Made by a program: the position numbers and the translations under genes. Below are positions 6,178-23,676 of a DNA stretch of 55,961 nucleotides, piece by piece. The DNA lies in the NCBI GenBank assembly GCA_017516885.1, contig JAFXAR010000039.1:1-55961 (forward strand), read 5' to 3'. The notes below the pieces were generated by a model. That model did no database searches. It was given only the letters and a program-made list of their open reading frames with translations, and was not told the DNA's origin. Every line of letters starts with the position of its first letter. The stretch's first letter is position 1. Source of the DNA: Bacteroidaceae bacterium. GTDB lineage: Bacteria; Bacteroidota; Bacteroidia; Bacteroidales; Bacteroidaceae.

Positions 6178-7059
6178 ATGCCCATAAAAGTACCCGCCGG
6201 ACTTCCGGCATTGCAAGCAGTAATAGACGAAGGGAACGCAGTGGAGACATTTGAAGTCTCCACTGCGCGCACCCTTCGCATAGCCCTGCTCAACATAATG
6301 CCAATGAAAGAGACCACAGAGGCCGATTTCATACGCCTCTTTTCCGAAACCGGCGAAGAGGTTGAGTTCACACTGATGAAGCTCGACACCCACACCCCCA
6401 AGCACGCCACCCCCGAGCACATGAACAGATACTACAAGGGATTCTCTCAGCTCAAGGGAGAGCACTTTGACGGACTTATTATAACCGGCGCACCAATAGA
6501 GAAAATCGAATTCGAAGAGGTATCCTACTGGCCCGAACTCTGCAGCATATTTGAATGGGCAAAAACCAACGTAACATCCACCCTCTTCATCTGCTGGGCA
6601 GCCCAGGCAGGGCTATACCGGAAATTCGGCATACAGAAACATCTGCTGCCAAAGAAAATGTTCGGAATATTCCCACACATAATAAACACCCCCGCACATC
6701 CCCTGTTCAAAGGCATTGGCGAGACACTCTACGTTCCCCACAGCCGCCACACAGAGATTCTGCGCAGCGACGTAACCGCATGCAAGGAGATTGAACTGCT
6801 GTCGGAAAGCGAAATTTCAGGCGTATACATAATGCAGGAAAAAGGCACGCTGAATTTCTTTATAACAGGACATTCCGAATATGCCCTGAACACCCTTGAC
6901 GGAGAGTACAAGCGCGACATCTCAAAAGGCCTGCCCATTGAACTGCCTCTGAACTACTACCTTAACAACAACCCAGCCAATACCCCGGTAAATCTGTGGC
7001 AGCACACCGCACGCCGCATGTTCGGCAACTGGCTCAAATATTTCTGCAAGGCGCAATAA
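6178..7059 (+). CDS. metA: Homoserine O-acyltransferase MetA, predicted acetyl-CoA type
   Basis: 293 residues. It acylates L-homoserine in the first committed step of methionine synthesis. The nucleophile is Cys139 in LFICWAAQAG, with His232 and Glu234 in GHSEY completing the triad. In this family the residue after GAP-x decides the acyl donor: Gly (Gly111 in E. coli) goes with succinyl-CoA and Glu with acetyl-CoA. Here the segment is GAPIEKIEF with Glu108, so acetyl-CoA is predicted despite the common succinyltransferase label. It starts 11 bases after the peptidase stop. thrA elsewhere in the window feeds the same branch. Confidence 0.95.
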   Translation: MPIKVPAGLPALQAVIDEGNAVETFEVSTARTLRIALLNIMPMKETTEADFIRLFSETGEEVEFTLMKLDTHTPKHATPEHMNRYYKGFSQLKGEHFDGLIITGAPIEKIEFEEVSYWPELCSIFEWAKTNVTSTLFICWAAQAGLYRKFGIQKHLLPKKMFGIFPHIINTPAHPLFKGIGETLYVPHSRHTEILRSDVTACKEIELLSESEISGVYIMQEKGTLNFFITGHSEYALNTLDGEYKRDISKGLPIELPLNYYLNNNPANTPVNLWQHTARRMFGNWLKYFCKAQ

Positions 7060-8720: not shown

Positions 8721-10526
8721 ATGAAAAAATTTACTCTACTAATCGCATCGCTGTTTATAACAATCGGTGCAATGGCGCAGTGGACTGTAGTAACAGTTAA
8801 AGGCGTTAACAATGTTCCAAGTGAAAAGGTTAACTTATCTGAAGGTCTTGAGAGCGGCTATTATCTGCTAAAGCAGGTTAATAGCAGTGCTAGTGCTGCC
8901 AAAGGGCAGGGTGTTGGCTGGATTAAGGCAGCAAGTGAAGCTGCAGATGCAGTTGTTACATCAAAAAATACAGGAGAACCGGGCACTAATGGTGTCACCT
9001 ATATTTGGTATGTTGAGGTTGTAGATGCAGAGAACAAATTGATTACAATCTCTACAGCAAACAAGGTTGCTGCATGGCAGGCTCCAGACAAGTATCAGAA
9101 GAACTTGGTTGCCTATGACAGCAGGGCAACACTGAAGTATCACACAGGCACTGTCAACCTTTCGGGCAACGCCACACCAAATGAAGGCTCTTGCTTTATT
9201 TCTAATGAAGGGACAACCGCCTTTGTTCATTTCTCAGGTGATAACTTAGGTTCTTGGACCGATACAAACTCTGGTTCTATGTTCATGGTGGAATTCTACA
9301 AGTTGGACGATGCCGATTTAAACAAGACAGAAACCATCTACAACCATTTGACATATACTGTTACCGATGAAACCGGAAAGGAGTATACAGGAACATATGA
9401 TGGTGTTGCCAGCACAACAGTACCCGAATTTACAGGCGCAGTTGGATACACCCTTACAGATGCCGTTTGGAATGACCTGAACTATACTGCAACAATCAAT
9501 TTTGCTTACCCTGTTTCAAATAAGGACAATGGTGTCACAAACGAAACCTTACTTACAATAAACGGTACTCAAAAATATATTTGCAATGTCGATGGCGATG
9601 TTAAGGTAAAGGAGAATACAGCTGATGCAAACTCCCTGTGGGCTATCTATCCTTCATTCAGCAATGGTGCGTTTACATTTGCAATAATGAACATTGCTAC
9701 CGGCAAATATATATACACAGAGGCTACTGCTGCAAAATTAGATAATACAGATACAAACACCGGTATAAGCAATAACGCTGCTGCTGGAACTTTTGTACTG
9801 AATAATACTCCAACACAGTTTGTAATTGCGAGTGATAAGGACTTCAAGATAAGTGACAAGAATCTATACCTTTCCATCAATTCACCTGCAAATGATAAAG
9901 ATGTTTATTTGGGATTGTACGGAAGTCCACATAATGGTACAAATGTCACAAAAGTAGACTTGCCATATTACGAGGTTGCTGTAACCGATGCAAAGTATGC
10001 CACTTTCTATGCTCCTTATGCAGTTACTGTTCCCGATGGTGTTACTGCACACACAGTTACACTCAACGGCGAATGGGCAACATTGAGCGATCCAATTGCA
10101 ACAATCCCTGCATACACGGGCGTTGTACTCTATTCTGAGACAGCAGCAACATATCAATTTACAGTTACAGCGGACGTAGACGCTATTGAAAACAACGCCC
10201 TCCGTGGTACAGTTGCTGCAACATACACAGACGGTCCTGCTTACGTTCTTTCAAACCAGGCAAACGGTGTAGGCTTCTACAAAGCGACACTTACTGATGG
10301 CCAGTTCCTTAACAACCACCACAAGGCATACTTGCCAAAGCCGGCTGGCGCTGAGAGCGTAGCATGCTACAGCTTCCGCTTTGGCGAGGGCACAACAGGC
10401 ATTGAGAATGTGAAAGGTGAAAACGGAAATGCGAAAGCAATCTTCGACCTCACCGGCCGCAAGGTAAACAGCATCAGCGCTCCCGGCATCTACATTGTTA
10501 ACGGCAAAAAGGTTTTGGTTAAGTAA
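8721..10526 (+). CDS. Secreted protein with T9SS-like C-terminal domain (paralogue 1)
   Basis: 601 residues from ATG at 8721. An upstream TTG would put 18 extra residues before the signal peptide. The signal peptide is MKKFTLLIASLFITIGAMAQ. The mature part is beta-rich and Thr/Asn-rich. It has ricin/lectin-like segments (LWAIYPSFSNGAFTFAIMN, then IATGKYIYTEA) and a module common in Prevotella surface proteins (KYATFYAPYAVTVPDG...IPAYTGVVLYS...HHKAYLPKP). The tail (GIENV...IFDLTGRKV...GIYIVNGKKVLVK) resembles the type A sorting domain of T9SS cargo, so surface display or release is predicted. The last 170 or so bases are nearly identical to those of the gene ending at 23096. The ligand is unknown. 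A micro-peptide gene follows after 65 bases. Confidence 0.85.
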   Translation: MKKFTLLIASLFITIGAMAQWTVVTVKGVNNVPSEKVNLSEGLESGYYLLKQVNSSASAAKGQGVGWIKAASEAADAVVTSKNTGEPGTNGVTYIWYVEVVDAENKLITISTANKVAAWQAPDKYQKNLVAYDSRATLKYHTGTVNLSGNATPNEGSCFISNEGTTAFVHFSGDNLGSWTDTNSGSMFMVEFYKLDDADLNKTETIYNHLTYTVTDETGKEYTGTYDGVASTTVPEFTGAVGYTLTDAVWNDLNYTATINFAYPVSNKDNGVTNETLLTINGTQKYICNVDGDVKVKENTADANSLWAIYPSFSNGAFTFAIMNIATGKYIYTEATAAKLDNTDTNTGISNNAAAGTFVLNNTPTQFVIASDKDFKISDKNLYLSINSPANDKDVYLGLYGSPHNGTNVTKVDLPYYEVAVTDAKYATFYAPYAVTVPDGVTAHTVTLNGEWATLSDPIATIPAYTGVVLYSETAATYQFTVTADVDAIENNALRGTVAATYTDGPAYVLSNQANGVGFYKATLTDGQFLNNHHKAYLPKPAGAESVACYSFRFGEGTTGIENVKGENGNAKAIFDLTGRKVNSISAPGIYIVNGKKVLVK

Positions 10527-10591
10527 CAGCAAGCGTTGCTTGTAAATTTTGTTCTTCTGTCAAAACGATAATATAAAAAACAATATCAGAT

Positions 10592-10774
10592 ATGAAAAAG
10601 ACATATATTTCACCTCTTGCAGCAGAGGTAAACGTAGAGGCAGAGCAGATGCTCGCAGCTTCACCAGCGACTTTGAACGTAGACAGCAGCAATGAAAATG
10701 CTGTAAACACAACAGGCGAAGGCGTTCAGCTCGACGGCGGCCGCCGCGGCGAGTGGGGCAATTTGTGGAAGTAA
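10592..10774 (+). CDS. Micro-peptide MKKTYISP family, copy 1
   Basis: 60 residues in three parts: a leader-like MKKTYISPLAAEVNVEAEQ; a Ser/Asn/Thr-rich middle (LNVDSSNENAVN); and a tail VQLDGG followed by RRGEWGNLWK. A second copy of 58 residues lies at 23225-23401 with the same ends, and both follow secreted-protein genes of one family. Bacteroidales genomes hold many short MKKxYxxP proteins of unknown function. The GG at 49-50, with Leu at -4, Val at -6 and a basic, Trp-rich ten-residue tail, resembles a double-glycine leader/core arrangement. That reading is inference, and no C39 peptidase is nearby. The stop codon lies in the loop of a hairpin reiterated downstream. Confidence 0.75.
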   Translation: MKKTYISPLAAEVNVEAEQMLAASPATLNVDSSNENAVNTTGEGVQLDGGRRGEWGNLWK

Positions 10775-11040
10775 TTCCGCAAATTGACACACGAGCGTAG
10801 CGGAGACACGCAGTGGCTCCTTTAATGTGCGCGGCAATAGTCGCACGAAGCATGGGCAAAGCTCATGCCGGGCGGGATGCCAAAAAGCGCACATTGAAAA
10901 TGGGGTAATTTGTGGAAATAATTTTCCGCAAATTGACACACGAGCGTAGCGGAGACACGCAGTGGCATCGTGGAAATAATTTTCCGCAAATTAACACACG
11001 AGCGTAGCGGAGACACGCAGTGGCTCCTTTAATGTGCGCG
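10765..11040. repeat. Hairpin-bearing 58-bp repeat array, locus 1
   Basis: Units begin at 10765, 10912 and 10970. Each has GTGGAAATAATTTTCCGC (a stem AATTTGTGGAAA with TTTCCGCAAATT) followed by ACACGAGCGTAGCGGAGACA and CGCAGTGG. The first unit starts inside the micro-peptide codons for its last residues. Between units 1 and 2 lies a stretch with a truncated copy of the peptide 3' end (10901-10921 reads WGNLWK stop). A 24-base block ending CTCCTTTAATGTGCGCGGC follows units 1 and 3. Confidence 0.9.
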
Positions 11041-11058: not shown

Positions 11059-11100
11059 GCAAAAAAAATCCGGGAATTGAATTTCCCGGATTTTTTTTGC
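11059..11100. terminator. Bidirectional terminator
   Basis: GCAAAAAAAATCCGGGAA pairs with TTCCCGGATTTTTTTTGC around a short loop. It ends the plus-strand peptide locus and the minus-strand ABC/GntR operon. Confidence 0.9.
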
Positions 11101-15347: not shown

Positions 15348-18300
15348 ATGGCAACCAAAAAAATTCTAAAGACAATGCTGGCATTGGCAGTAGCGCTGCC
15401 AATGAGCGCCGGCGCACAAGTCGACGTAAACCGGGACATGTACCCCGATTACAGCGACAAGACAAACCCCGACTGGTCACTGATGAAGCCAGCCGGAGCA
15501 AGCAAAAGCAATGCATCACGCACAGGCGAAGCCACCGCTTCACAAAGGCCCTCGCATGTGAACAACGCCGAACTAAAGTTCTTTCCGCCGGTATTCAACC
15601 AGGACGGAGGCTCATGCGGTTCAGCATCACGCATCTGCTACATGTTCACATACGAGCTTAACGCATACCGCAACCTTAGCGGCAAAAGCGCTGAGAACTA
15701 CTACCCCTCACATTTCGTGTGGCTGCTCACAAACGGCAACTCAGGAAAGAACGAGTTTGTTACAAGCATAGGCGTACCCTCTGCTGCCACATACGGCGGA
15801 CAGACATACTCGCAGACCTTTGGCAGCCAGGACTGCTCAAACGAGGACTTCGGCTGGATGCAGGGCTACGACAAATGGTTCGAGGCCATGCACAACCGTA
15901 TGCTCAATCCATCGAATTTCCCTGTAAACGTAGGCACTGAAGAGGGCCGCGAGGCTGTGAAAAACTGGCTGTGGAACCACAGCGGCGACACAAGCTTCCA
16001 GGCCGGCGGCATCTGCGGCATTGGTGTTGCAAGCTCAGGCGGCAACTACGACGGCAAGATTACCCGCACTGCGGCCAACAGCGAAGCGCAGGTTGTGGGC
16101 AAAAAGTATGTAAAGGCATGGGGAACACAGGTTGACCACGCCCTTACCATCGTTGGTTACGACGACCGCATCGAGTTCGACCTTGACGGCAACGGAGTAG
16201 CCGGCGAAGTTGAAAAAGACGAGGTGGGCGCATGGATTATTGTAAATTCATGGGGCGCATGGTGGGGCAACCAGGGATTCATCTACTGCCCCTACGCATA
16301 CGCCGGAGCATCGTTCCGAAGCGACGGCACATTCGCCGAAAACTGGTGGACGCCTGAAATCTACAAAGTAAGAAAAGACTACCGCCCCCTGCGCACAATA
16401 AAGCTTGAAATGGAGTACTCACGCCGAAGCGAAATAAAGCTTTCGGCTGGCATCTCGGCCGACATCAACGCAACAGCACCCGAGAGCACCATTGAGTTTG
16501 AGCACTTCAAATATGCCGGCGACGGTAACTACGGCAACACCAACCCCGCGCCCGAAGTTCCAATGCTTGGACGCTGGGCCGATGGAAAGCTCCACACAGA
16601 ACCGATGGAGTTCGGATACGACCTCACCGACCTCACAGCCGGATACGACCGCAGCATGCCCCTGAAATATTTCTTCATTGTAGAGACAAGAGGCTGGGGA
16701 AAAGGCAGCGGAAAAATCCACAACGCATCAATCATGGACTACGAGCACCATGCCGACGGTTTGGAGACACCATTCAACCTTGGCGAGGGCGTAGAAATCA
16801 AGAGCGCGGGCAACAAGACCATAATTTCGGTTGTAGTATACGGCGAGGAGTACTACGCACCGCAGAACTTCTCACTCAGCGGCAGAACATTGTCATGGCA
16901 GGCGCCAGTGCGTTCGGGCAAGAGCATTGACCGCTTCCGCATCTACAGCAACGACACAAAGATTGCCGAACTTGAACCGGCCGTAACAAAGTACAACATT
17001 CCGCAGGATGTTGCACTTGAAGGCACATTCAGCATTGCCGCGGTTTACGCCGACGGCGTTGAGTCGCAGAAGGTAACCCTGCAGGCCCCCATTGAGGAGG
17101 ATACCGTGAACACAGTAATCAACCTCATGCAATCGGGCATGAAACTCCCCGGCGTGTTCAACAACAAGTTCGAGAACATGACACTTGAGTTCTACATGAA
17201 GCCCAACTCACTTGCCAACTGGAACCAGAGCGCCGGACCGGGATGGGGAACATTCATGATGCACGCCAATGCAGACGGTTCGTATACCGTGGGCTGGGAC
17301 ACAAACAACAGAATAACAACCGCCACCGGACTGCTTTCTGTAGGCAAATGGACACATGTGGCCATAGTATGCAAAGGCAAGAATATTGCCGTGTATATCA
17401 ACGGAACACGAAGAGGCGCATTCACCTCGCAATCATACAATGGCATAGGCGGTTTCGGCGACCTTGTATTCTCTGCCGGCAATGCCAACACAGCACAGGA
17501 CGCGAGCTACGACGAAATACGTATATGGAACAAGGTACGCACTCCAAAGGAGATTCAGAACAGCATGAAGGCACAGTTTGCCGGCGAGCTTCTCCCCGAC
17601 GGACTTGTTGCATACTACCGCGGCAACACAATCACGGTGGATGGCCAGACGAAGATACGCGAATATGTGAACAACAGCCACGCTGAGATTCTCAACAACA
17701 ACTACAAAATTGAAGAGAGCAGCATAGCAATGGGCAAGACAAAGGCCACAATCAGCGCAAGCATCAATGCTGTAGACGGCGAAGTGCGCGCATGCATACC
17801 TGTAACATTCTCGGCAGCCTACAGCGATGCTGTAACAAAGCTCACATGGACAATAAAGGGCGCCGGCATTGAGAACCTTGCAATAAAAAAGCCAACAGCA
17901 ACCTTTACGGCAGCCGGAGAGCATGAGGTTATAGTAACCGCTGAAGACTTCAACGGCAACACCGTAACCGACACTCTTGTTGTAAACGTAACAGAAGAGC
18001 CTGAGGCCGATGCCACATTCAAGGCAAGCAAAGAGCCTGTTGTGAAGGGCGAAAAGGTGACATTCATTGTAGAGAAGCCGCAGATTGGATACATCTACGA
18101 GTGGACAATCCCTGGAACAGATGCCGATGAAAAGGTCTACGGCCTGCACGCAAGCGCAGTCTATAACACTGCCGGCAAACAGAATGTAACACTTAAGGTA
18201 ACATCGCTCAGCGGCAGCAAGAGCGCCACTTCAAGCATCGTTGTCGAAGTTCTTGACTCAAGGCCCGAAGCTGCATTTGAAGTTAGCCCGGCAATAATCG

Positions 18301-19895
18301 TAAAGGGCGAAAAGACATTCCTTAAGGACATTTCGGCCTACAGGCCTACAGAATGGGAATGGACCATTGAGAACAACTACAAGAAGTTCATTGTAAACGG
18401 ACAGAACAGCAGCCTTACACCCGATGTAAGCGGCATATACTCCGTAACCCTTAAGGCCGGCAACGAAATAGGCTCATCAACCGCAACACGCGAGCGCGCG
18501 CTAATCGTTTGCAACGCCGACAGCAGGAACGGCCTGAGCTTCAGCGGCCGCGACAATGCAACCGTAACAGCCGACCTTTCACTGCCGCAGAGCGACGTGC
18601 TTACCATAGAATGGTGGATGCGCCCCGATGCCCTTACCGCATCGTGCCTCGGCATTGGAGAGAGCGAAAGCACCTTCCTGCTCAAGACAGACGAGGATGG
18701 AGTGATGACAATCAGTGCAGGAGGCGTATCGGGCAAGAGCGAACCCAACCTTGTAATTGCCAACGAATGGCATCACTACGCCGTAGTCTTTGAAAAGACA
18801 GACTACGGATGCTTTGCCGAATTCCATCGCGACGGAGAGTACTTCTCAACAGCATTCATCGAAGGCAACGCAGGAATCCCCGCATTGAGCACATTCTCAA
18901 TTGGCAACAGCAGCGCAAGCATGAGCGGACAGATTGACGAGTTCCGCATTTGGAAGAATATAGTAAACTATGAGAAGCTGCTCGCTGTGTGCAACGCACC
19001 GCTCGAGAACCCAGAGAGCATGACCGACCTTGCACTCTACTACGACTTTAACCAGAGCGGCGGCGATGTAATTGACCGCAGCGGCAACAGCCACAACGGA
19101 GTGCGCAGCGGATTCGGCCCCGACGGCGACGCATGGGGTCTGTCAAGAGGCGTATTCTGCCTGAATACCGACCCAAGCATTGAAAATGGCGAGGTAAGCA
19201 AAAAGTACCTCAGCAACTACCGCAGCGAGTTCAACCACGATGCAAGCACAAAGGTAAACACAAGCGTTGCCAACCGCTTCTACAAGCTCGCTGAATGGAC
19301 CATTGAAAATGCGGTTGTAAATGGCAGCGTCACCACCGGAGCTCACGTTGATGCAGAGAAATCGTACTGCATGACCTTTACAACAACATGGGACGGGTTC
19401 AGCAGCTCGCTCAACAACCACAAGGTTTACCAAACAGTTACACTGCCGGCCGGAAACTACAAGTTCACCGCAAGCTACCACACAACATGGGAGGGACAGT
19501 GCGACAACAGCTATGTAATTGCCGACCTCGGCACAGGCCTACCTGACAATGCCAAAATTGACGATGCCATTGCATACAAGAAAATGGCCGCAAAGGGCAA
19601 TGCAATGGACAACAGCATTGAGTTCACACTTGAGCAGGAGAGCGAAGTAAGCCTTGGTTTGCTTGTAAACATGACCGGACTGGCATGTATGGCAATTGAC
19701 CGCTTCTCACTTGAGCGCGACAATGTTGAATACATTGAGGCCGACGGAGAGACAGCAACATCAATTGAAAGCATAGTGGAGAACGAGAACTGGAACGGCG
19801 ACAATTCAATCTACGACCTCCACGGCCGCAAGGTGCTCGAAACCCAAAAGGGCAACATATATATTATAAGAGGTAAAAAGGTATTGGTAAAGTAA
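15348..19895 (+). CDS. Secreted papain-like protease with LamG and PKD-like domains and T9SS-like tail
   Basis: 1515 residues. After a signal peptide (MATKKILKTMLALAVALPM to GAQ) comes a C1-type cysteine protease domain: Cys90 in GGSCGSAS, His264 in VDHALTIVGYDD and Asn300 in IIVNSWGAWWG, all catalytic residues being intact. A beta domain follows. Then come a laminin-G/concanavalin-like domain (about 585-740, TLEFYMKPNSL), several PKD/Ig-like repeats (about 800-1070, with repeated VVKGEKVTF and TWTI), a second LamG domain (LTIEWWMRPDAL), a further beta-rich carbohydrate-binding-like domain, and a C-terminal sorting-like tail (IYDLHGRKVLETQKGNIYIIRGKKVLVK in two pieces). It is probably exported by T9SS and acts on host or dietary protein or glycoprotein. 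GC is higher than in the two flanking secreted genes. Confidence 0.9.
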   Translation: MATKKILKTMLALAVALPMSAGAQVDVNRDMYPDYSDKTNPDWSLMKPAGASKSNASRTGEATASQRPSHVNNAELKFFPPVFNQDGGSCGSASRICYMFTYELNAYRNLSGKSAENYYPSHFVWLLTNGNSGKNEFVTSIGVPSAATYGGQTYSQTFGSQDCSNEDFGWMQGYDKWFEAMHNRMLNPSNFPVNVGTEEGREAVKNWLWNHSGDTSFQAGGICGIGVASSGGNYDGKITRTAANSEAQVVGKKYVKAWGTQVDHALTIVGYDDRIEFDLDGNGVAGEVEKDEVGAWIIVNSWGAWWGNQGFIYCPYAYAGASFRSDGTFAENWWTPEIYKVRKDYRPLRTIKLEMEYSRRSEIKLSAGISADINATAPESTIEFEHFKYAGDGNYGNTNPAPEVPMLGRWADGKLHTEPMEFGYDLTDLTAGYDRSMPLKYFFIVETRGWGKGSGKIHNASIMDYEHHADGLETPFNLGEGVEIKSAGNKTIISVVVYGEEYYAPQNFSLSGRTLSWQAPVRSGKSIDRFRIYSNDTKIAELEPAVTKYNIPQDVALEGTFSIAAVYADGVESQKVTLQAPIEEDTVNTVINLMQSGMKLPGVFNNKFENMTLEFYMKPNSLANWNQSAGPGWGTFMMHANADGSYTVGWDTNNRITTATGLLSVGKWTHVAIVCKGKNIAVYINGTRRGAFTSQSYNGIGGFGDLVFSAGNANTAQDASYDEIRIWNKVRTPKEIQNSMKAQFAGELLPDGLVAYYRGNTITVDGQTKIREYVNNSHAEILNNNYKIEESSIAMGKTKATISASINAVDGEVRACIPVTFSAAYSDAVTKLTWTIKGAGIENLAIKKPTATFTAAGEHEVIVTAEDFNGNTVTDTLVVNVTEEPEADATFKASKEPVVKGEKVTFIVEKPQIGYIYEWTIPGTDADEKVYGLHASAVYNTAGKQNVTLKVTSLSGSKSATSSIVVEVLDSRPEAAFEVSPAIIVKGEKTFLKDISAYRPTEWEWTIENNYKKFIVNGQNSSLTPDVSGIYSVTLKAGNEIGSSTATRERALIVCNADSRNGLSFSGRDNATVTADLSLPQSDVLTIEWWMRPDALTASCLGIGESESTFLLKTDEDGVMTISAGGVSGKSEPNLVIANEWHHYAVVFEKTDYGCFAEFHRDGEYFSTAFIEGNAGIPALSTFSIGNSSASMSGQIDEFRIWKNIVNYEKLLAVCNAPLENPESMTDLALYYDFNQSGGDVIDRSGNSHNGVRSGFGPDGDAWGLSRGVFCLNTDPSIENGEVSKKYLSNYRSEFNHDASTKVNTSVANRFYKLAEWTIENAVVNGSVTTGAHVDAEKSYCMTFTTTWDGFSSSLNNHKVYQTVTLPAGNYKFTASYHTTWEGQCDNSYVIADLGTGLPDNAKIDDAIAYKKMAAKGNAMDNSIEFTLEQESEVSLGLLVNMTGLACMAIDRFSLERDNVEYIEADGETATSIESIVENENWNGDNSIYDLHGRKVLETQKGNIYIIRGKKVLVK

Positions 19896-20303: not shown

Positions 20304-23096
20304 ATGAAAAGATTTACTTTAATCCTTTCGTTGATGGTAGTCATGGCTACCACAGCGATGGCGCAGACGGTTGTTAGAGCAATCAACCCTGCAAAGTATT
20401 ACACACTTTCGTGTAAAGCCACAGACCATGGTACTTTCATCAATGACAACGGTACTGTAATCAACGGACGTTCATTAACCGCTACATGCTTCCAGTTTGA
20501 GGTTGCCGATGGTGTTGAAAACGGTTACTACATTAAGAGTGTTGTTTCAGGAAAGTACCTGAATAGTAATGGTTCAAATGTTACAGCTGCCGACACCAAG
20601 ACTGCTTGGATATTGGGTATCCCCGATCATACTGCTGATGCTGTCTATTTTGGGGTTAACGGCACTGCAGGCGTGTTCCTGAACAATAATGGAACTAGCA
20701 GCGACGGCACATGTGAAGGTCTTAAGATTGCTTCACACGGAACCAGCGGTCCTGCTGCAACCAACGCATGCTCCTTGTGGACATTGACAGAGTATGACGA
20801 GATTCCATACACACAAGTTGCCATTACTGCGTTAAGCCAGCTGAGCAACAGCAAGGTTTATACATTCAAGTCTGGCAGAGGCGCTCACTACCTGCTCTAT
20901 CACACCGTTGCTCCCGACAACCTTTCTTCAACATACGGCAGCGGTCACCCAATGGACTATTCAAGCACAACTGAAAACTTCCAGTTTGCTGTTTACAAAT
21001 TCCAGGACAATTACTACATGTTCAACATTGCCGCTAAGAAATTCATAGGTAATAACGACAACAACAATGGTGCAATTCCTCTTGTGGAGATGCCTACAAA
21101 CGACATAGAGTTCCGCGCTTCACAAAACGCAATACACAACTTTGTTATCTCTACAAACGGAACAGGCGCTCTCAACTGCGCTGCTACAGGAGGCTGCCAC
21201 GGTGTTGTAAACTGGAACGGTGGTTATAACGACCTCACCGACCCAGGTAACGTATACCTTATAATCGAGGTTGGTGACTTGAGTGCAGAGCTCACTGCAG
21301 TTATTGAGGAGAGACTGAATGTTGGCGTTACTCTTGCTGAGGCGCAGTCTATTATTGACGGTGCAAGCGACACTAGAGTAGGTGCATACACAACAGCAAC
21401 TGTTGCCGGTTTGCAGAATGCTTTGAACACATACAATGCAAGCCAGACAGCACAAAACCTTGAGGCAATAAAAACAGCCATCAACACCGTTAAGACAAGT
21501 GGCGAAAAGGTAACTTTGAGCGCAAACGAGATATTTACTGTAAAGTGTGTTGAGGATACTCGCGGATACATGGTTTACTCTACCGTTGAGGGTAAGGGAA
21601 GCGATACCCAGGTTTACCTTGCTGAAACACCATACATTGATGCTAATCAAGTGAAGTATCATCCTGGAATAGCAGACGAAGGTGTTTACAAAGAGTGGGC
21701 TATGGCTGTACGCAACGGCAAGAAGTATATCTACAATGTGGAGAAAAAGCAGTTTATCAGCGCTGACGGTGTTGTTCAGTTTACAAATTCTCCCACAGCC
21801 TTGAATATCATTGAAATTGAAAACAATCTTTGCGAGATTCAGTTTGAATCAAACAACAAATACCTTTCCTTCTCTCCAGGTTGGGGCGCAGACTGCGTAC
21901 GTACAGAATATGGAGTAGACAATGGTTGTAAATTCTACCTTGACAAAACCGGAGAAACAGTAAATGCTGATGCTATTGCAACTGTAGAGACTATAATTAT
22001 CAATGACTGGAAAGAGGCAGCATTGGCAACAATTGGTTATGTTGGCGGTTATCCTTCTACACTTGAAGCGTCAATCAACGCTGTTAACACATTGGCTGGA
22101 ACAACTGAGTTTGAGAACGCAAACGCTACATCAAAAATTCAGTTTGCTCCTGGATACTACTTCGTTAAGCAGGTAAGTACCGGCAAGTATGCTTCATACA
22201 ACGCCAACGGCAAATTTGCAACTGAGGATGTTGAAAAACTGGGTATTAAGCATGTTCTCCAGTTTGTTCAGGATGGTGAGAACATCAAGCTCCAGGTTCC
22301 TAACTTGGGCAAGAATGTTCAGTTGGAGGATGCTTCAGCAAATGGCAGCGGTGCATCATCTATTGTTGATGGCGGTTCTAACTTCGCCGTAGTTATCAAC
22401 AATTCAGCAAATGTAATCATCAAAGGCGACGGTCAGCCAATGCGTACAGAGGGTTCTGGAGCAATCAACTACTGGAGTGGCGAAACAAATGCAACTTGGA
22501 ACATTATTCCTGCAAACGACATTGAGATCTCTGTAAACGAATTTGCATCGCTTTACTTGCCATTTGCAGTTAGCGTTGAAGGCGCAACAGCATACGCAGT
22601 AGAGAGCACAAATGATACATATGTAACCCTGACAGAAAAGAGTGACATCCCTGCAAATAAGGGTGCAATCCTCGCAACTGATGGCGAAGCAACTGTAACA
22701 CTCAACATTCTTGCAGAGGCTGAATCAGACTGGACAAACAACAAGCTCCAGGGTTCAACAATTGACAGTTATGTTGCAGGCGCTGCTTATGTTCTTGCTA
22801 ATGGCAATAACGGCATTGGCCTTTACAAGACAATCCTCAATGTTGACGGTACTGGTGCAACCGGCGAAACCCACTTCAAGAACAACGCAAACAAGGCTTA
22901 CTTGCCTGCAGTTGCCGGTGCTTCTAACGTAGCATGCTACAGCTTCCGCTTTGGCGAGGGCACAACTGGCATTGAGAATGTGAAAGGTGAGAACGGAAAT
23001 GCGAAAGCAATCTTCGACCTCACCGGCCGCAAGGTGAACAGCATCACTGCTCCTGGCATCTACATTGTAGGTGGCCGCAAGGTTTTGGTTAAGTAA
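20304..23096 (+). CDS. Secreted protein with T9SS-like C-terminal domain (paralogue 2)
   Basis: 930 residues with signal peptide MKRFTLILSLMVVMATTAMA. It contains several ricin/lectin-like beta segments (for example KYYTLSCKATDHGTFINDNG and LYHTVAPDNLSS). A helical FIVAR-like spacer follows (LAEAQSIIDGASDTRVGAYT...LQNALNTYNASQ), then the NEFASLYLPFAVSVEGA...IPANKGAILATDG module and the tail IFDLTGRKVNSITAPGIYIV ending in KKVLVK-like GGRKVLVK. From SNVACYSFRFGEG onward the DNA is nearly identical to the gene ending at 10526. Surface display by a type IX pathway is predicted. Host-glycan or polysaccharide binding is plausible but not shown. A micro-peptide gene follows after 128 bases. Confidence 0.85.
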   Translation: MKRFTLILSLMVVMATTAMAQTVVRAINPAKYYTLSCKATDHGTFINDNGTVINGRSLTATCFQFEVADGVENGYYIKSVVSGKYLNSNGSNVTAADTKTAWILGIPDHTADAVYFGVNGTAGVFLNNNGTSSDGTCEGLKIASHGTSGPAATNACSLWTLTEYDEIPYTQVAITALSQLSNSKVYTFKSGRGAHYLLYHTVAPDNLSSTYGSGHPMDYSSTTENFQFAVYKFQDNYYMFNIAAKKFIGNNDNNNGAIPLVEMPTNDIEFRASQNAIHNFVISTNGTGALNCAATGGCHGVVNWNGGYNDLTDPGNVYLIIEVGDLSAELTAVIEERLNVGVTLAEAQSIIDGASDTRVGAYTTATVAGLQNALNTYNASQTAQNLEAIKTAINTVKTSGEKVTLSANEIFTVKCVEDTRGYMVYSTVEGKGSDTQVYLAETPYIDANQVKYHPGIADEGVYKEWAMAVRNGKKYIYNVEKKQFISADGVVQFTNSPTALNIIEIENNLCEIQFESNNKYLSFSPGWGADCVRTEYGVDNGCKFYLDKTGETVNADAIATVETIIINDWKEAALATIGYVGGYPSTLEASINAVNTLAGTTEFENANATSKIQFAPGYYFVKQVSTGKYASYNANGKFATEDVEKLGIKHVLQFVQDGENIKLQVPNLGKNVQLEDASANGSGASSIVDGGSNFAVVINNSANVIIKGDGQPMRTEGSGAINYWSGETNATWNIIPANDIEISVNEFASLYLPFAVSVEGATAYAVESTNDTYVTLTEKSDIPANKGAILATDGEATVTLNILAEAESDWTNNKLQGSTIDSYVAGAAYVLANGNNGIGLYKTILNVDGTGATGETHFKNNANKAYLPAVAGASNVACYSFRFGEGTTGIENVKGENGNAKAIFDLTGRKVNSITAPGIYIVGGRKVLVK

Positions 23097-23108
23097 TTGA
23101 CCAAAAAT

Positions 23109-23136
23109 AGCAAGGGCGGGTTTCGCCCGCCCTTGC
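23109..23136 (+). terminator. Terminator-like hairpin between secreted gene and micro-peptide
   Basis: GCAAGGGCGGG, loop TTTC, CCCGCCCTTGC. It has no long T-run after it, so it may only partly terminate transcription before the peptide gene. Confidence 0.7.
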
Positions 23137-23151
23137 AAAACAACCAGATTA

Positions 23152-23180
23152 TGTCATCTTGACGCAAGGAGCAATGACAT
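23152..23180. repeat. Short GTCAT dyad
   Basis: TGTCATCTTGACGCAAGGAG continues to CAATGACA, a small inverted repeat related to the one at 15225-15298. Confidence 0.4.
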
Positions 23181-23224
23181 TGCAAATATGACATGTAACA
23201 ATAACAGTTAGAAATAATAATAAC

Positions 23225-23401
23225 ATGAAGAAGACATATATTTCACCTCTTGCAGCAGAGGTAAACGTAGAGGCAGAGCAGCTGATGCTTACAGCTTCAT
23301 TGAACGTAGACAGCAGCAATGAAAATGCTGTAAACACAAGTGACAAAGGCGTTCAGCTTGACGGCGGCCGCCGCGGCGAGTGGGGTAATTTGTGGAAATA
23401 A
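23225..23401 (+). CDS. Micro-peptide MKKTYISP family, copy 2
   Basis: 58 residues. MKKTYISPLAAEVNVEAEQ is identical to copy 1, then LMLTASLNVDSSNENAVNTS, and the same tail VQLDGG and RRGEWGNLWK. The ends are conserved while the middle differs by an insertion/deletion (copy 1 has MLAASPAT) and by TGE versus SDK before GVQLDGG. That indel pattern leaves the frame intact, which supports translation. The gene follows the second secreted protein just as copy 1 follows the first. As in copy 1, TAA lies in the loop of the AATTTGTGGAAA/TTTCCGCAAATT hairpin that begins the downstream repeat array. Function unknown. Confidence 0.78.
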   Translation: MKKTYISPLAAEVNVEAEQLMLTASLNVDSSNENAVNTSDKGVQLDGGRRGEWGNLWK

Positions 23402-23565
23402 TTTTCCGCAAATTAGCACACGAGCGTAGCGGAGACACGCAGTGGCATCGTGGAAATAATTTTCCGCAAATTGACACACGAGCGCAGCGGAGACACGCAG
23501 TGGCATCGTGGAAATAATTTTCCACAAATTAGCACACGAGCGCAGCTCAGACACGCAGTGGTTCA
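23392..23565. repeat. 58-bp tandem repeat array, locus 2 (three units)
   Basis: Units start at 23392, 23450 and 23508, exactly 58 bases apart. Each has the hairpin GTGGAAATAATTTTCC(G/A)C followed by ACACGAGCG(T/C)AGC...ACACGCAGTGG. The first unit overlaps the last three codons of the micro-peptide. The first 34 bases around the stop (23381-23414) are identical to 10901-10934. Confidence 0.93.
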
Positions 23566-23590
23566 TAGAACTGCTATATACAATTAACAA

Positions 23591-23621
23591 GCAAGGGAAG
23601 CATTACCGCTTCCCTTGCTTT
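23591..23621 (+). terminator. Terminator after the micro-peptide array
   Basis: AGCAAGGGAAGC, loop ATTACC, GCTTCCCTTGCT, then TTG. It probably ends the second secreted-protein/peptide unit. Confidence 0.75.
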
Positions 23622-23676
23622 GTTATTACCCCATAACGGAGAACGGAAAACTGAGCCGGAGGCGAAGCTTAGACAA

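What the first reader, a model, noticed from the sequence alone, without database searches (positions are those of the whole stretch)
8721..11040. Duplicated cassette: secreted T9SS-like protein, micro-peptide gene, hairpin array
Two loci (8721-11040 and 20304-23565) share the same order: a signal-peptide lectin-like protein with a near-identical C-terminal tail, then a 58-60 codon gene starting MKKTYISP and ending GGRRGEWGNLWK, then an array of 58-bp hairpin units. The peptide ends are conserved while the middle varies by an indel that keeps the frame, which argues for translation. I know of no described function for this arrangement. Co-duplication of all three parts suggests they work as a unit, for example a peptide linked to surface display, signalling or competition.
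Basis: partly seen in the sequence, partly recalled or inferred. Interest (0 to 1): 0.8.

Follow-up and report, generated by a model that had tools for sequence, protein, structure and literature searches.

The report
Tiny proteins paired with exported proteins
Gut bacteria of the Bacteroides group carry many copies of an uncharacterised 50-60 residue protein whose gene usually sits right behind genes for one class of exported protein and evolves together with the far end of that protein, which suggests it is a dedicated partner of it.

Summary
Two loci share a cargo gene with a near-identical end, a 58-60 codon ORF and 58-bp repeats. The ORF looks translated (purifying selection, frame kept). 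It belongs to a large family without a Pfam, NCBIfam or PHROG model: 37 of 44 same-genus and 186 of 299 same-family genomes. It lies behind a gene with a T9SS-type tail in 60 of 75 same-genus loci and 32 of 37 loci from other genera (controls 0 of 60, 2 of 70). The tail follows the translocon SprA (1 of 16 genomes without, 11 of 16 with SprA).

New here: the peptide tracks a ~130-residue domain before the tail. In two further genomes 7 of 11 tail genes with that domain have it, 3 of 46 without. Within genomes peptide and domain diverge together (r 0.76), peptide and the region further up hardly (0.20).

The 58-bp array is local, not conserved. Function is unproven. Best guess: a cytosolic, cis-encoded export or folding partner of the cargo's C-terminal module. 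Export by a C39 transporter is unlikely (C39 in 5 of 44 genomes).

The parts
8721..10526 (+). Cargo protein 1 (601 aa): signal-like N-terminus, passenger, pre-tail domain, T9SS-type tail
9957..10352 (+). Pre-tail domain (~130 aa) of cargo 1; the part that predicts presence of the peptide gene
   Evidence: A6; profile score 123.1 bits
10302..10523 (+). T9SS-type C-terminal tail of cargo 1 (profile match, overlaps the end of the pre-tail domain)
   Evidence: profile A4 match E 1.5e-29; this tail is itself a row of A4
10592..10774 (+). Peptide gene 1, 60 aa
10775..11051 (+). Three repeat units with hairpins (58-bp type); the first set apart by 149 bp; not conserved in relatives
11059..11100 (.). 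Perfect 18-bp inverted repeat, terminator-like by eye
20304..23096 (+). Cargo protein 2 (930 aa): signal-like N-terminus, passenger, pre-tail domain, T9SS-type tail
22521..22922 (+). Pre-tail domain of cargo 2 (end approximate)
   Evidence: A6; 114.1 bits
22869..23093 (+). T9SS-type C-terminal tail of cargo 2
   Evidence: profile A4 match E 3.3e-28
23110..23136 (+). GC-rich perfect hairpin (11-bp stem) between cargo 2 and its peptide gene; similar ones at several same-genus loci
23225..23401 (+). Peptide gene 2, 58 aa
23392..23565 (+). Three tandem 58-bp units; the first overlaps the last codons of the peptide gene
23582..23627 (.). Inverted repeat, terminator-like by eye
15348..19895 (+). Contrast inside the window: a third tail gene (1515 aa) without pre-tail domain and without a peptide gene

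Best explanation
Shown: the 58-60 aa ORFs belong to a large small-protein family. Most copies examined lie directly behind a gene for a protein with a T9SS-type tail, and almost only behind the subset of such cargo that has a particular ~130-aa domain before the tail. The peptide diverges together with that domain and tail and hardly with the region further up. Inferred: the peptide is a cognate partner of the C-terminal module (pre-tail domain plus tail). It is acidic and hydrophilic and shows no signal, so it most likely acts in the cytoplasm: made right after the cargo, it holds the C-terminal module in an export-competent form or escorts it, using its conserved ends (Tyr-x-x-Pro ... Leu-Ala-x-Ser, and the C-terminal Trp motif). 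Cargo without its own peptide gene would be served in trans by a paralogue.
For: Position: 60 of 75 same-genus and 32 of 37 other-genus loci; controls 0 of 60 and 2 of 70. Domain link: G000, peptide after 6 of 11 tail genes with the domain and 0 of 16 without; G019 and G004, 7 of 11 against 3 of 46 (Fisher p 1e-4); after widening the domain profile on the pooled set, 9 of 13 against 1 of 47. Peptide-linked cargo with the domain: 58 of 59 same-genus (the miss is a 112-aa fragment) and 26 of 26 of the other-genus cargo put into that test. Co-divergence within 12 genomes, 65 pairs: pre-tail r 0.76 (reached by 0 of 1000 shuffles), tail 0.67 (4 of 1000), region further up 0.20 (59 of 1000). Translation: pooled dN/dS 0.25 / 0.34 / 0.10 for N-terminal, middle and C-terminal parts; A-rich stretch before the ATG. 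No signal: highest 15-aa hydropathy median 0.97 against 2.05 for the first 30 aa of the cargo; median pI 5.1. T9SS link: peptide in 176 of 225 SprA-positive and 10 of 74 SprA-negative genomes.
Against: No physical interaction, localisation or phenotype is known. 4 of 13 domain-bearing cargo genes of G019/G004 and 5 of 11 of G000 (two of the five cut by contig ends) lack a peptide gene in cis. 15 of 75 same-genus peptides have no tail gene upstream; 10 of these 15 share the core A[PQ]DSDDSEFG, and 7 of those 10 lie before an uncharacterised lipoprotein-like gene, the other 3 ending at a contig end. Co-divergence could reflect physical linkage in a duplicated 3' cassette. The domain profile was trained on peptide-linked loci and the tail profile holds tails of some tested loci. 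The SprA correlation is not corrected for phylogeny. Known T9SS cargo fold in the periplasm (PMC5445135, passage read), so a cytosolic factor is not required by current models.
Confidence: 0.4

Rival explanations
1. Exported peptide (signal, bacteriocin-like or modified peptide): residues 1-24 are a leader ending at a Leu-Ala-x-Ser site, and the variable remainder with its Trp motif is released and acts outside the cell.
For: Conserved N-terminal part, Ser at the LA-x-S position in 99% of 114 distinct peptides, variable middle. Copies of one genome resemble each other (nearest neighbour in the same genome 38 of 56), as expected for a species-specific signal.
Against: No hydrophobic signal. Peptidase C39 in 5 of 44 genomes of the genus, none in G000, while 37 of 44 have the peptide. 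No maturation gene noticed by eye among the large ORFs of 16 longer loci (not searched systematically). One genome may carry very different peptides that follow their own cargo domain (G004). Cys in 3 of 61.
Confidence: 0.2
2. Surface or periplasmic partner: the peptide reaches the envelope by an unknown route and completes or anchors the pre-tail domain, or accepts the cargo after tail cleavage.
For: Co-divergence with pre-tail domain and tail. [quoted passage not shown]
Against: No export signal or tail on the peptide. One natural fusion puts the peptide in front of a signal-like stretch and a nuclease, which would leave it on the cytoplasmic side.
Confidence: 0.13
3. Regulatory small protein that senses backlog of the cargo or controls expression of the operon.
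For: A hairpin with a stem of 10 bp or more lies between cargo and peptide genes at 10 of 59 linked loci; acidic soluble protein.
Against: Co-divergence with one cargo domain, and one copy per cargo gene, is more than a regulator needs; no DNA-binding family among the library matches.
Confidence: 0.12
4. Passive passenger of a 3' exchange cassette: recombination swaps pre-tail domain, tail and following ORF between cargo genes, and the peptide has no role for the cargo.
For: 3' part of the two window loci far more alike than the 5' part; within-genome similarity; several copies lie at contig ends (not counted).
Against: Purifying selection in all three parts of the ORF, spread over 20 of 25 genera, Y-x-x-P at the N-terminus of 114 of 114.
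Confidence: 0.1

Closest known systems
T9SS type B cargo and its PorP/SprF-like shuttle (Flavobacterium johnsoniae SprB-SprF)
   Same: A cognate partner gene lies directly downstream of a T9SS cargo gene; partner matches the cargo's C-terminal signal; some cargo are orphans (9 of 12 adjacent there); cargo known or predicted to be adhesins (PMC12618676, abstract and passages read).
   Different: SprF is a shuttle protein that collects the cargo after passage of the outer membrane; here the partner is 50-60 aa, hydrophilic, without signal, and the tail weakly resembles a gingipain (type A) CTD.
T9SS type A sorting domain (TIGR04183 / PF18962; gingipain R2 CTD structures 5ag8, 5ag9)
   Same: Tail at the extreme C-terminus of proteins with signal-like N-termini; weak profile match to gingipain R2 CTD (E 0.24-0.32); distribution follows SprA with one exception.
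   Different: The curated model is not reached: 1 of 27 tails matches at E up to 1, best 0.01.
Double-glycine leader peptides exported by C39 transporters (recalled; bacteroidetocins seen only as a search listing, PMC6671954)
   Same: Short precursor with conserved N-terminal part and variable remainder.
   Different: No C39 domain found in 39 of 44 genomes of the genus; conserved site is LA-x-S, not GG.
Small-protein catalogues of the microbiome (PMC11364881, three passages seen)
   Same: Short, lineage-restricted, conserved ORFs.
   Different: This family has a defined genomic partner and co-diverges with one domain of it. Whether it is already an anonymous cluster in such a catalogue was not checked.

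Membership tests
T9SS cargo, type A CTD (TIGR04183) | Match to the curated model above cut-off | tested here: not met
   No match for P0001/P0002 at E<=1; 1 of 27 tails at E<=1, best 0.01
T9SS cargo, type A CTD (TIGR04183) | N-terminal Sec-type signal plus C-terminal tail | tested here: met
   Read from the sequence of the two window proteins; hydropathy of cargo N-termini; no signal-peptide predictor was available
T9SS cargo, type A CTD (TIGR04183) | Distribution follows the T9SS translocon SprA | tested here: met
   Tail in 1 of 16 SprA-negative (exception G051) and 11 of 16 SprA-positive genomes that I chose; genus g7: 0 of 3 negative, 2 of 2 positive; genus g3: 1 of 6 positive
T9SS cargo, type A CTD (TIGR04183) | Ig-like fold of the CTD, cleavage by PorU | not testable with these tools
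   Structure prediction switched off
SprF-like cognate shuttle | Gene directly downstream of the cargo gene | tested here: met
   60 of 75 and 32 of 37 loci
SprF-like cognate shuttle | PorP/SprF-family protein of the outer membrane | tested here: not met
   51-60 aa in the linked same-genus set, hydrophilic; no Pfam or NCBIfam match
SprF-like cognate shuttle | Required for secretion of the cognate cargo | not testable with these tools
   needs deletion and secretion assay
C39-exported leader peptide / RiPP | C39 peptidase-transporter in the genome | tested here: not met
   5 of 44 genomes, none in G000 (MAGs, incomplete)
C39-exported leader peptide / RiPP | Modification enzyme next to the precursor gene | tested here: inconclusive
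   None recognised by eye at 16 longer loci. G000 has three SPASM-domain genes, on contigs C69, C53 and C47; its peptide genes are on C34, C66, C57, C52, C59 and C20

The most novel reading that the evidence does not exclude
A family of cis-encoded small cytosolic proteins, often several per genome, each matched to the C-terminal module of its own T9SS cargo: a cargo-specific export or folding partner of a kind that my searches did not find described for the T9SS.
Probability: 0.35. Interest if true: 0.85.

Novelty: new variant of a known kind. Interest (0 to 1): 0.66.

Why it matters
The family reaches 20 of 25 genera examined of a major gut family. A 2017 review says it is unknown whether T9SS cargo, once in the periplasm, require chaperones for folding or guidance to the translocon (PMC5445135, passage read). 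A small-protein gene that marks one class of cargo, and changes with its C-terminal module, is a concrete candidate for a dedicated partner that can be tested by deletion and pull-down. It would also give a function to a family that the domain libraries searched here miss.

Tried and rejected
Array as functional part: rejected. The unit occurs only at these two loci of the genome. Tandem repeats, mostly of unrelated sequence, lie within 700 bp after 24 of 86 peptide ORFs (control 2 of 74, but in upstream coding sequence, not in intergenic sequence). A stem of 10 bp or more follows the stop at 25 of 57 linked loci.

C39-type export: rejected as the general route.

Association with the tail alone: replaced by association with the pre-tail domain.

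RNA families: none in the window at gathering threshold. Pfam, NCBIfam, PHROGs for the peptide: best E 0.03, 0.11, 0.11, single members each. PDB: none for the peptide. Pre-tail domain: no Pfam family for more than 3 of 33 members, best E 0.005.

Results against or limiting: the SprA correlation is not phylogenetically corrected; 14 of the 26 copies in SprA-negative genomes are in G051. By genus, peptide without SprA in g2 and g12, SprA without peptide in g6 and g22; of six SprA-positive g3 genomes five lack tail and peptide, and one SprA-negative g3 genome has two peptides. dN/dS is pooled over 354 non-independent pairs. The loci are not a random sample: 80 of the roughly 150 other-genome matches listed were fetched, best scores first, those at a visible contig start mostly skipped; the 37 other-genus loci are the best-match loci of 24 genomes that I chose for good matches and.

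Papers: searches listed no title or abstract on this pairing; one search searched six literal sequence strings and found none. Only open-licence PMC text was searched. Passages were read of PMC4804311, PMC5445135, PMC12618676, PMC10202324 and PMC11364881; no paper was read whole.

Full report
Observation. Each has a secreted-protein gene (601 and 930 aa), a 60- or 58-codon ORF, and three copies of a hairpin-rich repeat. The two loci are alike mainly in their 3' part: identical of aligned bases 490 of 1097 in the first 1200 nt of the ORFs, 186 of 339 in the domain before the tail, 179 of 206 in the tail, 164 of 174 in the peptide gene. The 29-bp repeat core has 6 copies in the window and no others in the genome.

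Peptide family. In its own genome (G000, 2.3 Mb, 75 contigs, 87% complete) a profile finds 8 copies. In the genus 37 of 44 genomes, G000 included, have it at E 0.01 or better, with up to 17 copies. Among 299 genomes drawn from the family, at least 85% complete, 186 have it at E 0.001 or better, in 20 of 25 genera, up to 21 copies. In a draw of 294 genomes of the order, 4 match at E 1e-4: G000 and three genomes of one genus of another family. The 80 named loci kept are mostly ruminant-gut Bacteroidaceae MAGs, with a few labelled Bacteroidales, Rikenellaceae or Alistipes. None of 26 diverse members matches Pfam, NCBIfam or PHROGs beyond chance, and there is no PDB relative. In 114 distinct peptides (8 of 123 loci left out because their match began inside the ORF) Y-x-x-P stands at the N-terminus of all, Ser of L-A-x-S in 99%, and a Trp in the last 12 residues of 110.

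Translated? Yes, by inference. Pooled over 354 pairs dN/dS is 0.25 (N-terminal), 0.34 (middle), 0.10 (C-terminal). The bases before the ATG are A-rich, for example 76% A at -13 and 71% at -16, against 31% A at -60 to -31 (78 peptides). The two window copies differ by 5.5 synonymous and 4.5 nonsynonymous changes over 36.7 and 134.3 sites.

Where it lies. I fetched 80 of the roughly 150 other-genome matches listed (best scores first, those at a visible contig start mostly skipped) and added 6 of G000; 11 of the 86 had less than 800 bp upstream and were set aside. With one profile for the tail, a tail gene ends within 700 bp upstream on the same strand in 60 of 75, and in 32 of 37 loci from other genera (the best-match loci), there at 10-77 bp in 30 of 32. 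Controls: from the other side 0 of 60; at a point 2000 bp upstream 2 of 70. The tail profile contains tails of some of these loci. Of the 15 same-genus exceptions 10 share the core A[PQ]DSDDSEFG; 7 of these lie before a lipoprotein-like gene and 3 end at a contig end; two of those lipoprotein-like products had no Pfam match. Five of the 37 other-genus loci also lack a tail gene.

Is the tail a T9SS signal? Its profile matches the ends of 4kca and 7jvi in the PDB (E 9e-10, 6e-7) and, weakly, gingipain R2 CTD (E 0.24-0.32). It does not reach TIGR04183. Yet among 32 genomes that I chose it occurs in 11 of 16 SprA-positive and 1 of 16 SprA-negative ones; the exception G051 has 69 tails and 14 peptides but no SprA found. 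Within genus g7 three SprA-negative genomes have 0 tails and two positive ones have 12 and 31; in genus g3 five of six SprA-positive genomes have none. The peptide follows SprA: 176 of 225 positive and 10 of 74 negative genomes; 866 and 26 copies, 14 of the 26 in G051, uncorrected for phylogeny. I call it a divergent T9SS-type tail, not a member of the curated family.

What the peptide tracks. Not every tail gene has it. Of 34 tail hits in G000, 27 gave a readable tail protein: those with a ~130-aa domain before the tail have the peptide in 6 of 11 cases (two of the five misses are cut by contig ends), those without the domain in 0 of 16 (one of them cut). After five rounds of widening the profile on the pooled set, all 60 counted: 9 of 13 against 1 of 47; in G000 6 of 12 against 0 of 15. 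Nearly all peptide-linked cargo have the domain: 58 of 59 same-genus and 26 of 26 other-genus cargo put into that test (26 of the 37 loci passed its filter). The widening is partly circular, the first test less so. The domain has no Pfam family.

Co-divergence. In 12 genomes with three or more loci (82 loci in all, 65 within-genome pairs), peptide identity follows pre-tail identity (r 0.76; 0 of 1000 within-genome shuffles reach it) and tail identity (0.67; 4 of 1000), but hardly the region further up (0.20; 59 of 1000). Of 10 cargo proteins scanned, Pfam finds BspA-type LRR (2), F5/8 type C, fn3, BACON, and a BNR repeat below cut-off; the other four have nothing or a weak DUF. So pre-tail domain, tail and peptide behave as one module, and passengers vary.

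How it may work. The peptide is acidic (median pI 5.1) and hydrophilic, with no stretch like a signal. C39 peptidases were found in 5 of 44 genomes of the genus. This leaves a cytosolic role as the simplest reading: a cis-encoded partner of the cargo's C-terminal module. That step is inference. Precedent for a partner gene directly behind T9SS cargo, matched to the C-terminal signal and with some orphan cargo, is SprF for type B cargo (PMC12618676, abstract and passages read); the partner there is a different, outer-membrane shuttle. [quoted passage not shown] PMC5445135 (passages) states that the need of periplasmic cargo for chaperones is unknown. PMC10202324 (passages) describes type A, B and C tails.

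The array. Its unit starts in the last codons of the peptide gene. In relatives the same place often holds a strong hairpin (stem of 10 bp or more at 25 of 57 linked loci) or tandem repeats of other sequence (24 of 86 loci have any, the two window loci included). I read it as local amplification of the gene end and a terminator-like hairpin.

Verdict. A real, widespread, uncharacterised small-protein family with a specific, co-diverging genomic partner. The pairing is well supported; the mechanism is not.

Noticed in passing
L288:8979-10313 (genome G311, contig 14): A peptide ORF runs in frame into a signal-like stretch and a DNA/RNA non-specific endonuclease (PF01223), close behind a tail gene: a natural fusion.
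   Followed up: partly
L009, L104, L107, L122, L128, L130, L149 (also L103, L116, L139, cut by contig ends): A peptide subfamily with core [FI]TG[NS]A[PQ]DSDDSEFG lies upstream of an uncharacterised lipoprotein-like gene instead of behind a tail gene; the core is also seen in MAGs labelled Rikenellaceae and Alistipes (L214, L222).
   Followed up: partly
L293:3570-3979 and 6797-7000 (genome G270): Three peptides with a Trp-free C-terminus among lipoprotein-like genes in a genome with a single tail hit.
   Followed up: no
peptides, residues 20-24: The conserved LA-[AT]-S looks like a lipobox (motif recalled) with Ser for Cys, but no hydrophobic stretch precedes it.
   Followed up: no
window:23110-23136 and intergenic regions of several same-genus loci: GC-rich hairpin of the type GGGCGGG...CGCCCGCCC between cargo and peptide genes, possibly a terminator or attenuator.
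   Followed up: partly
window:23850-23923: Degenerate 7-bp tandem repeat (TCTGTTA) 3' of the second locus; 7-bp tandem repeats also follow several other peptide loci.
   Followed up: no
window:29052-29116: 14-bp tandem repeat AAGGTGAAAACGGA, 4.6 copies.
   Followed up: no
window:15348-19895: 1515-aa protein with papain-type peptidase, laminin-G-like, PKD and DUF5013 matches and a T9SS-type tail but no peptide gene.
   Followed up: partly
genome G051: 100% complete genome with 69 tails and 14 peptides in which SprA was not found.
   Followed up: no
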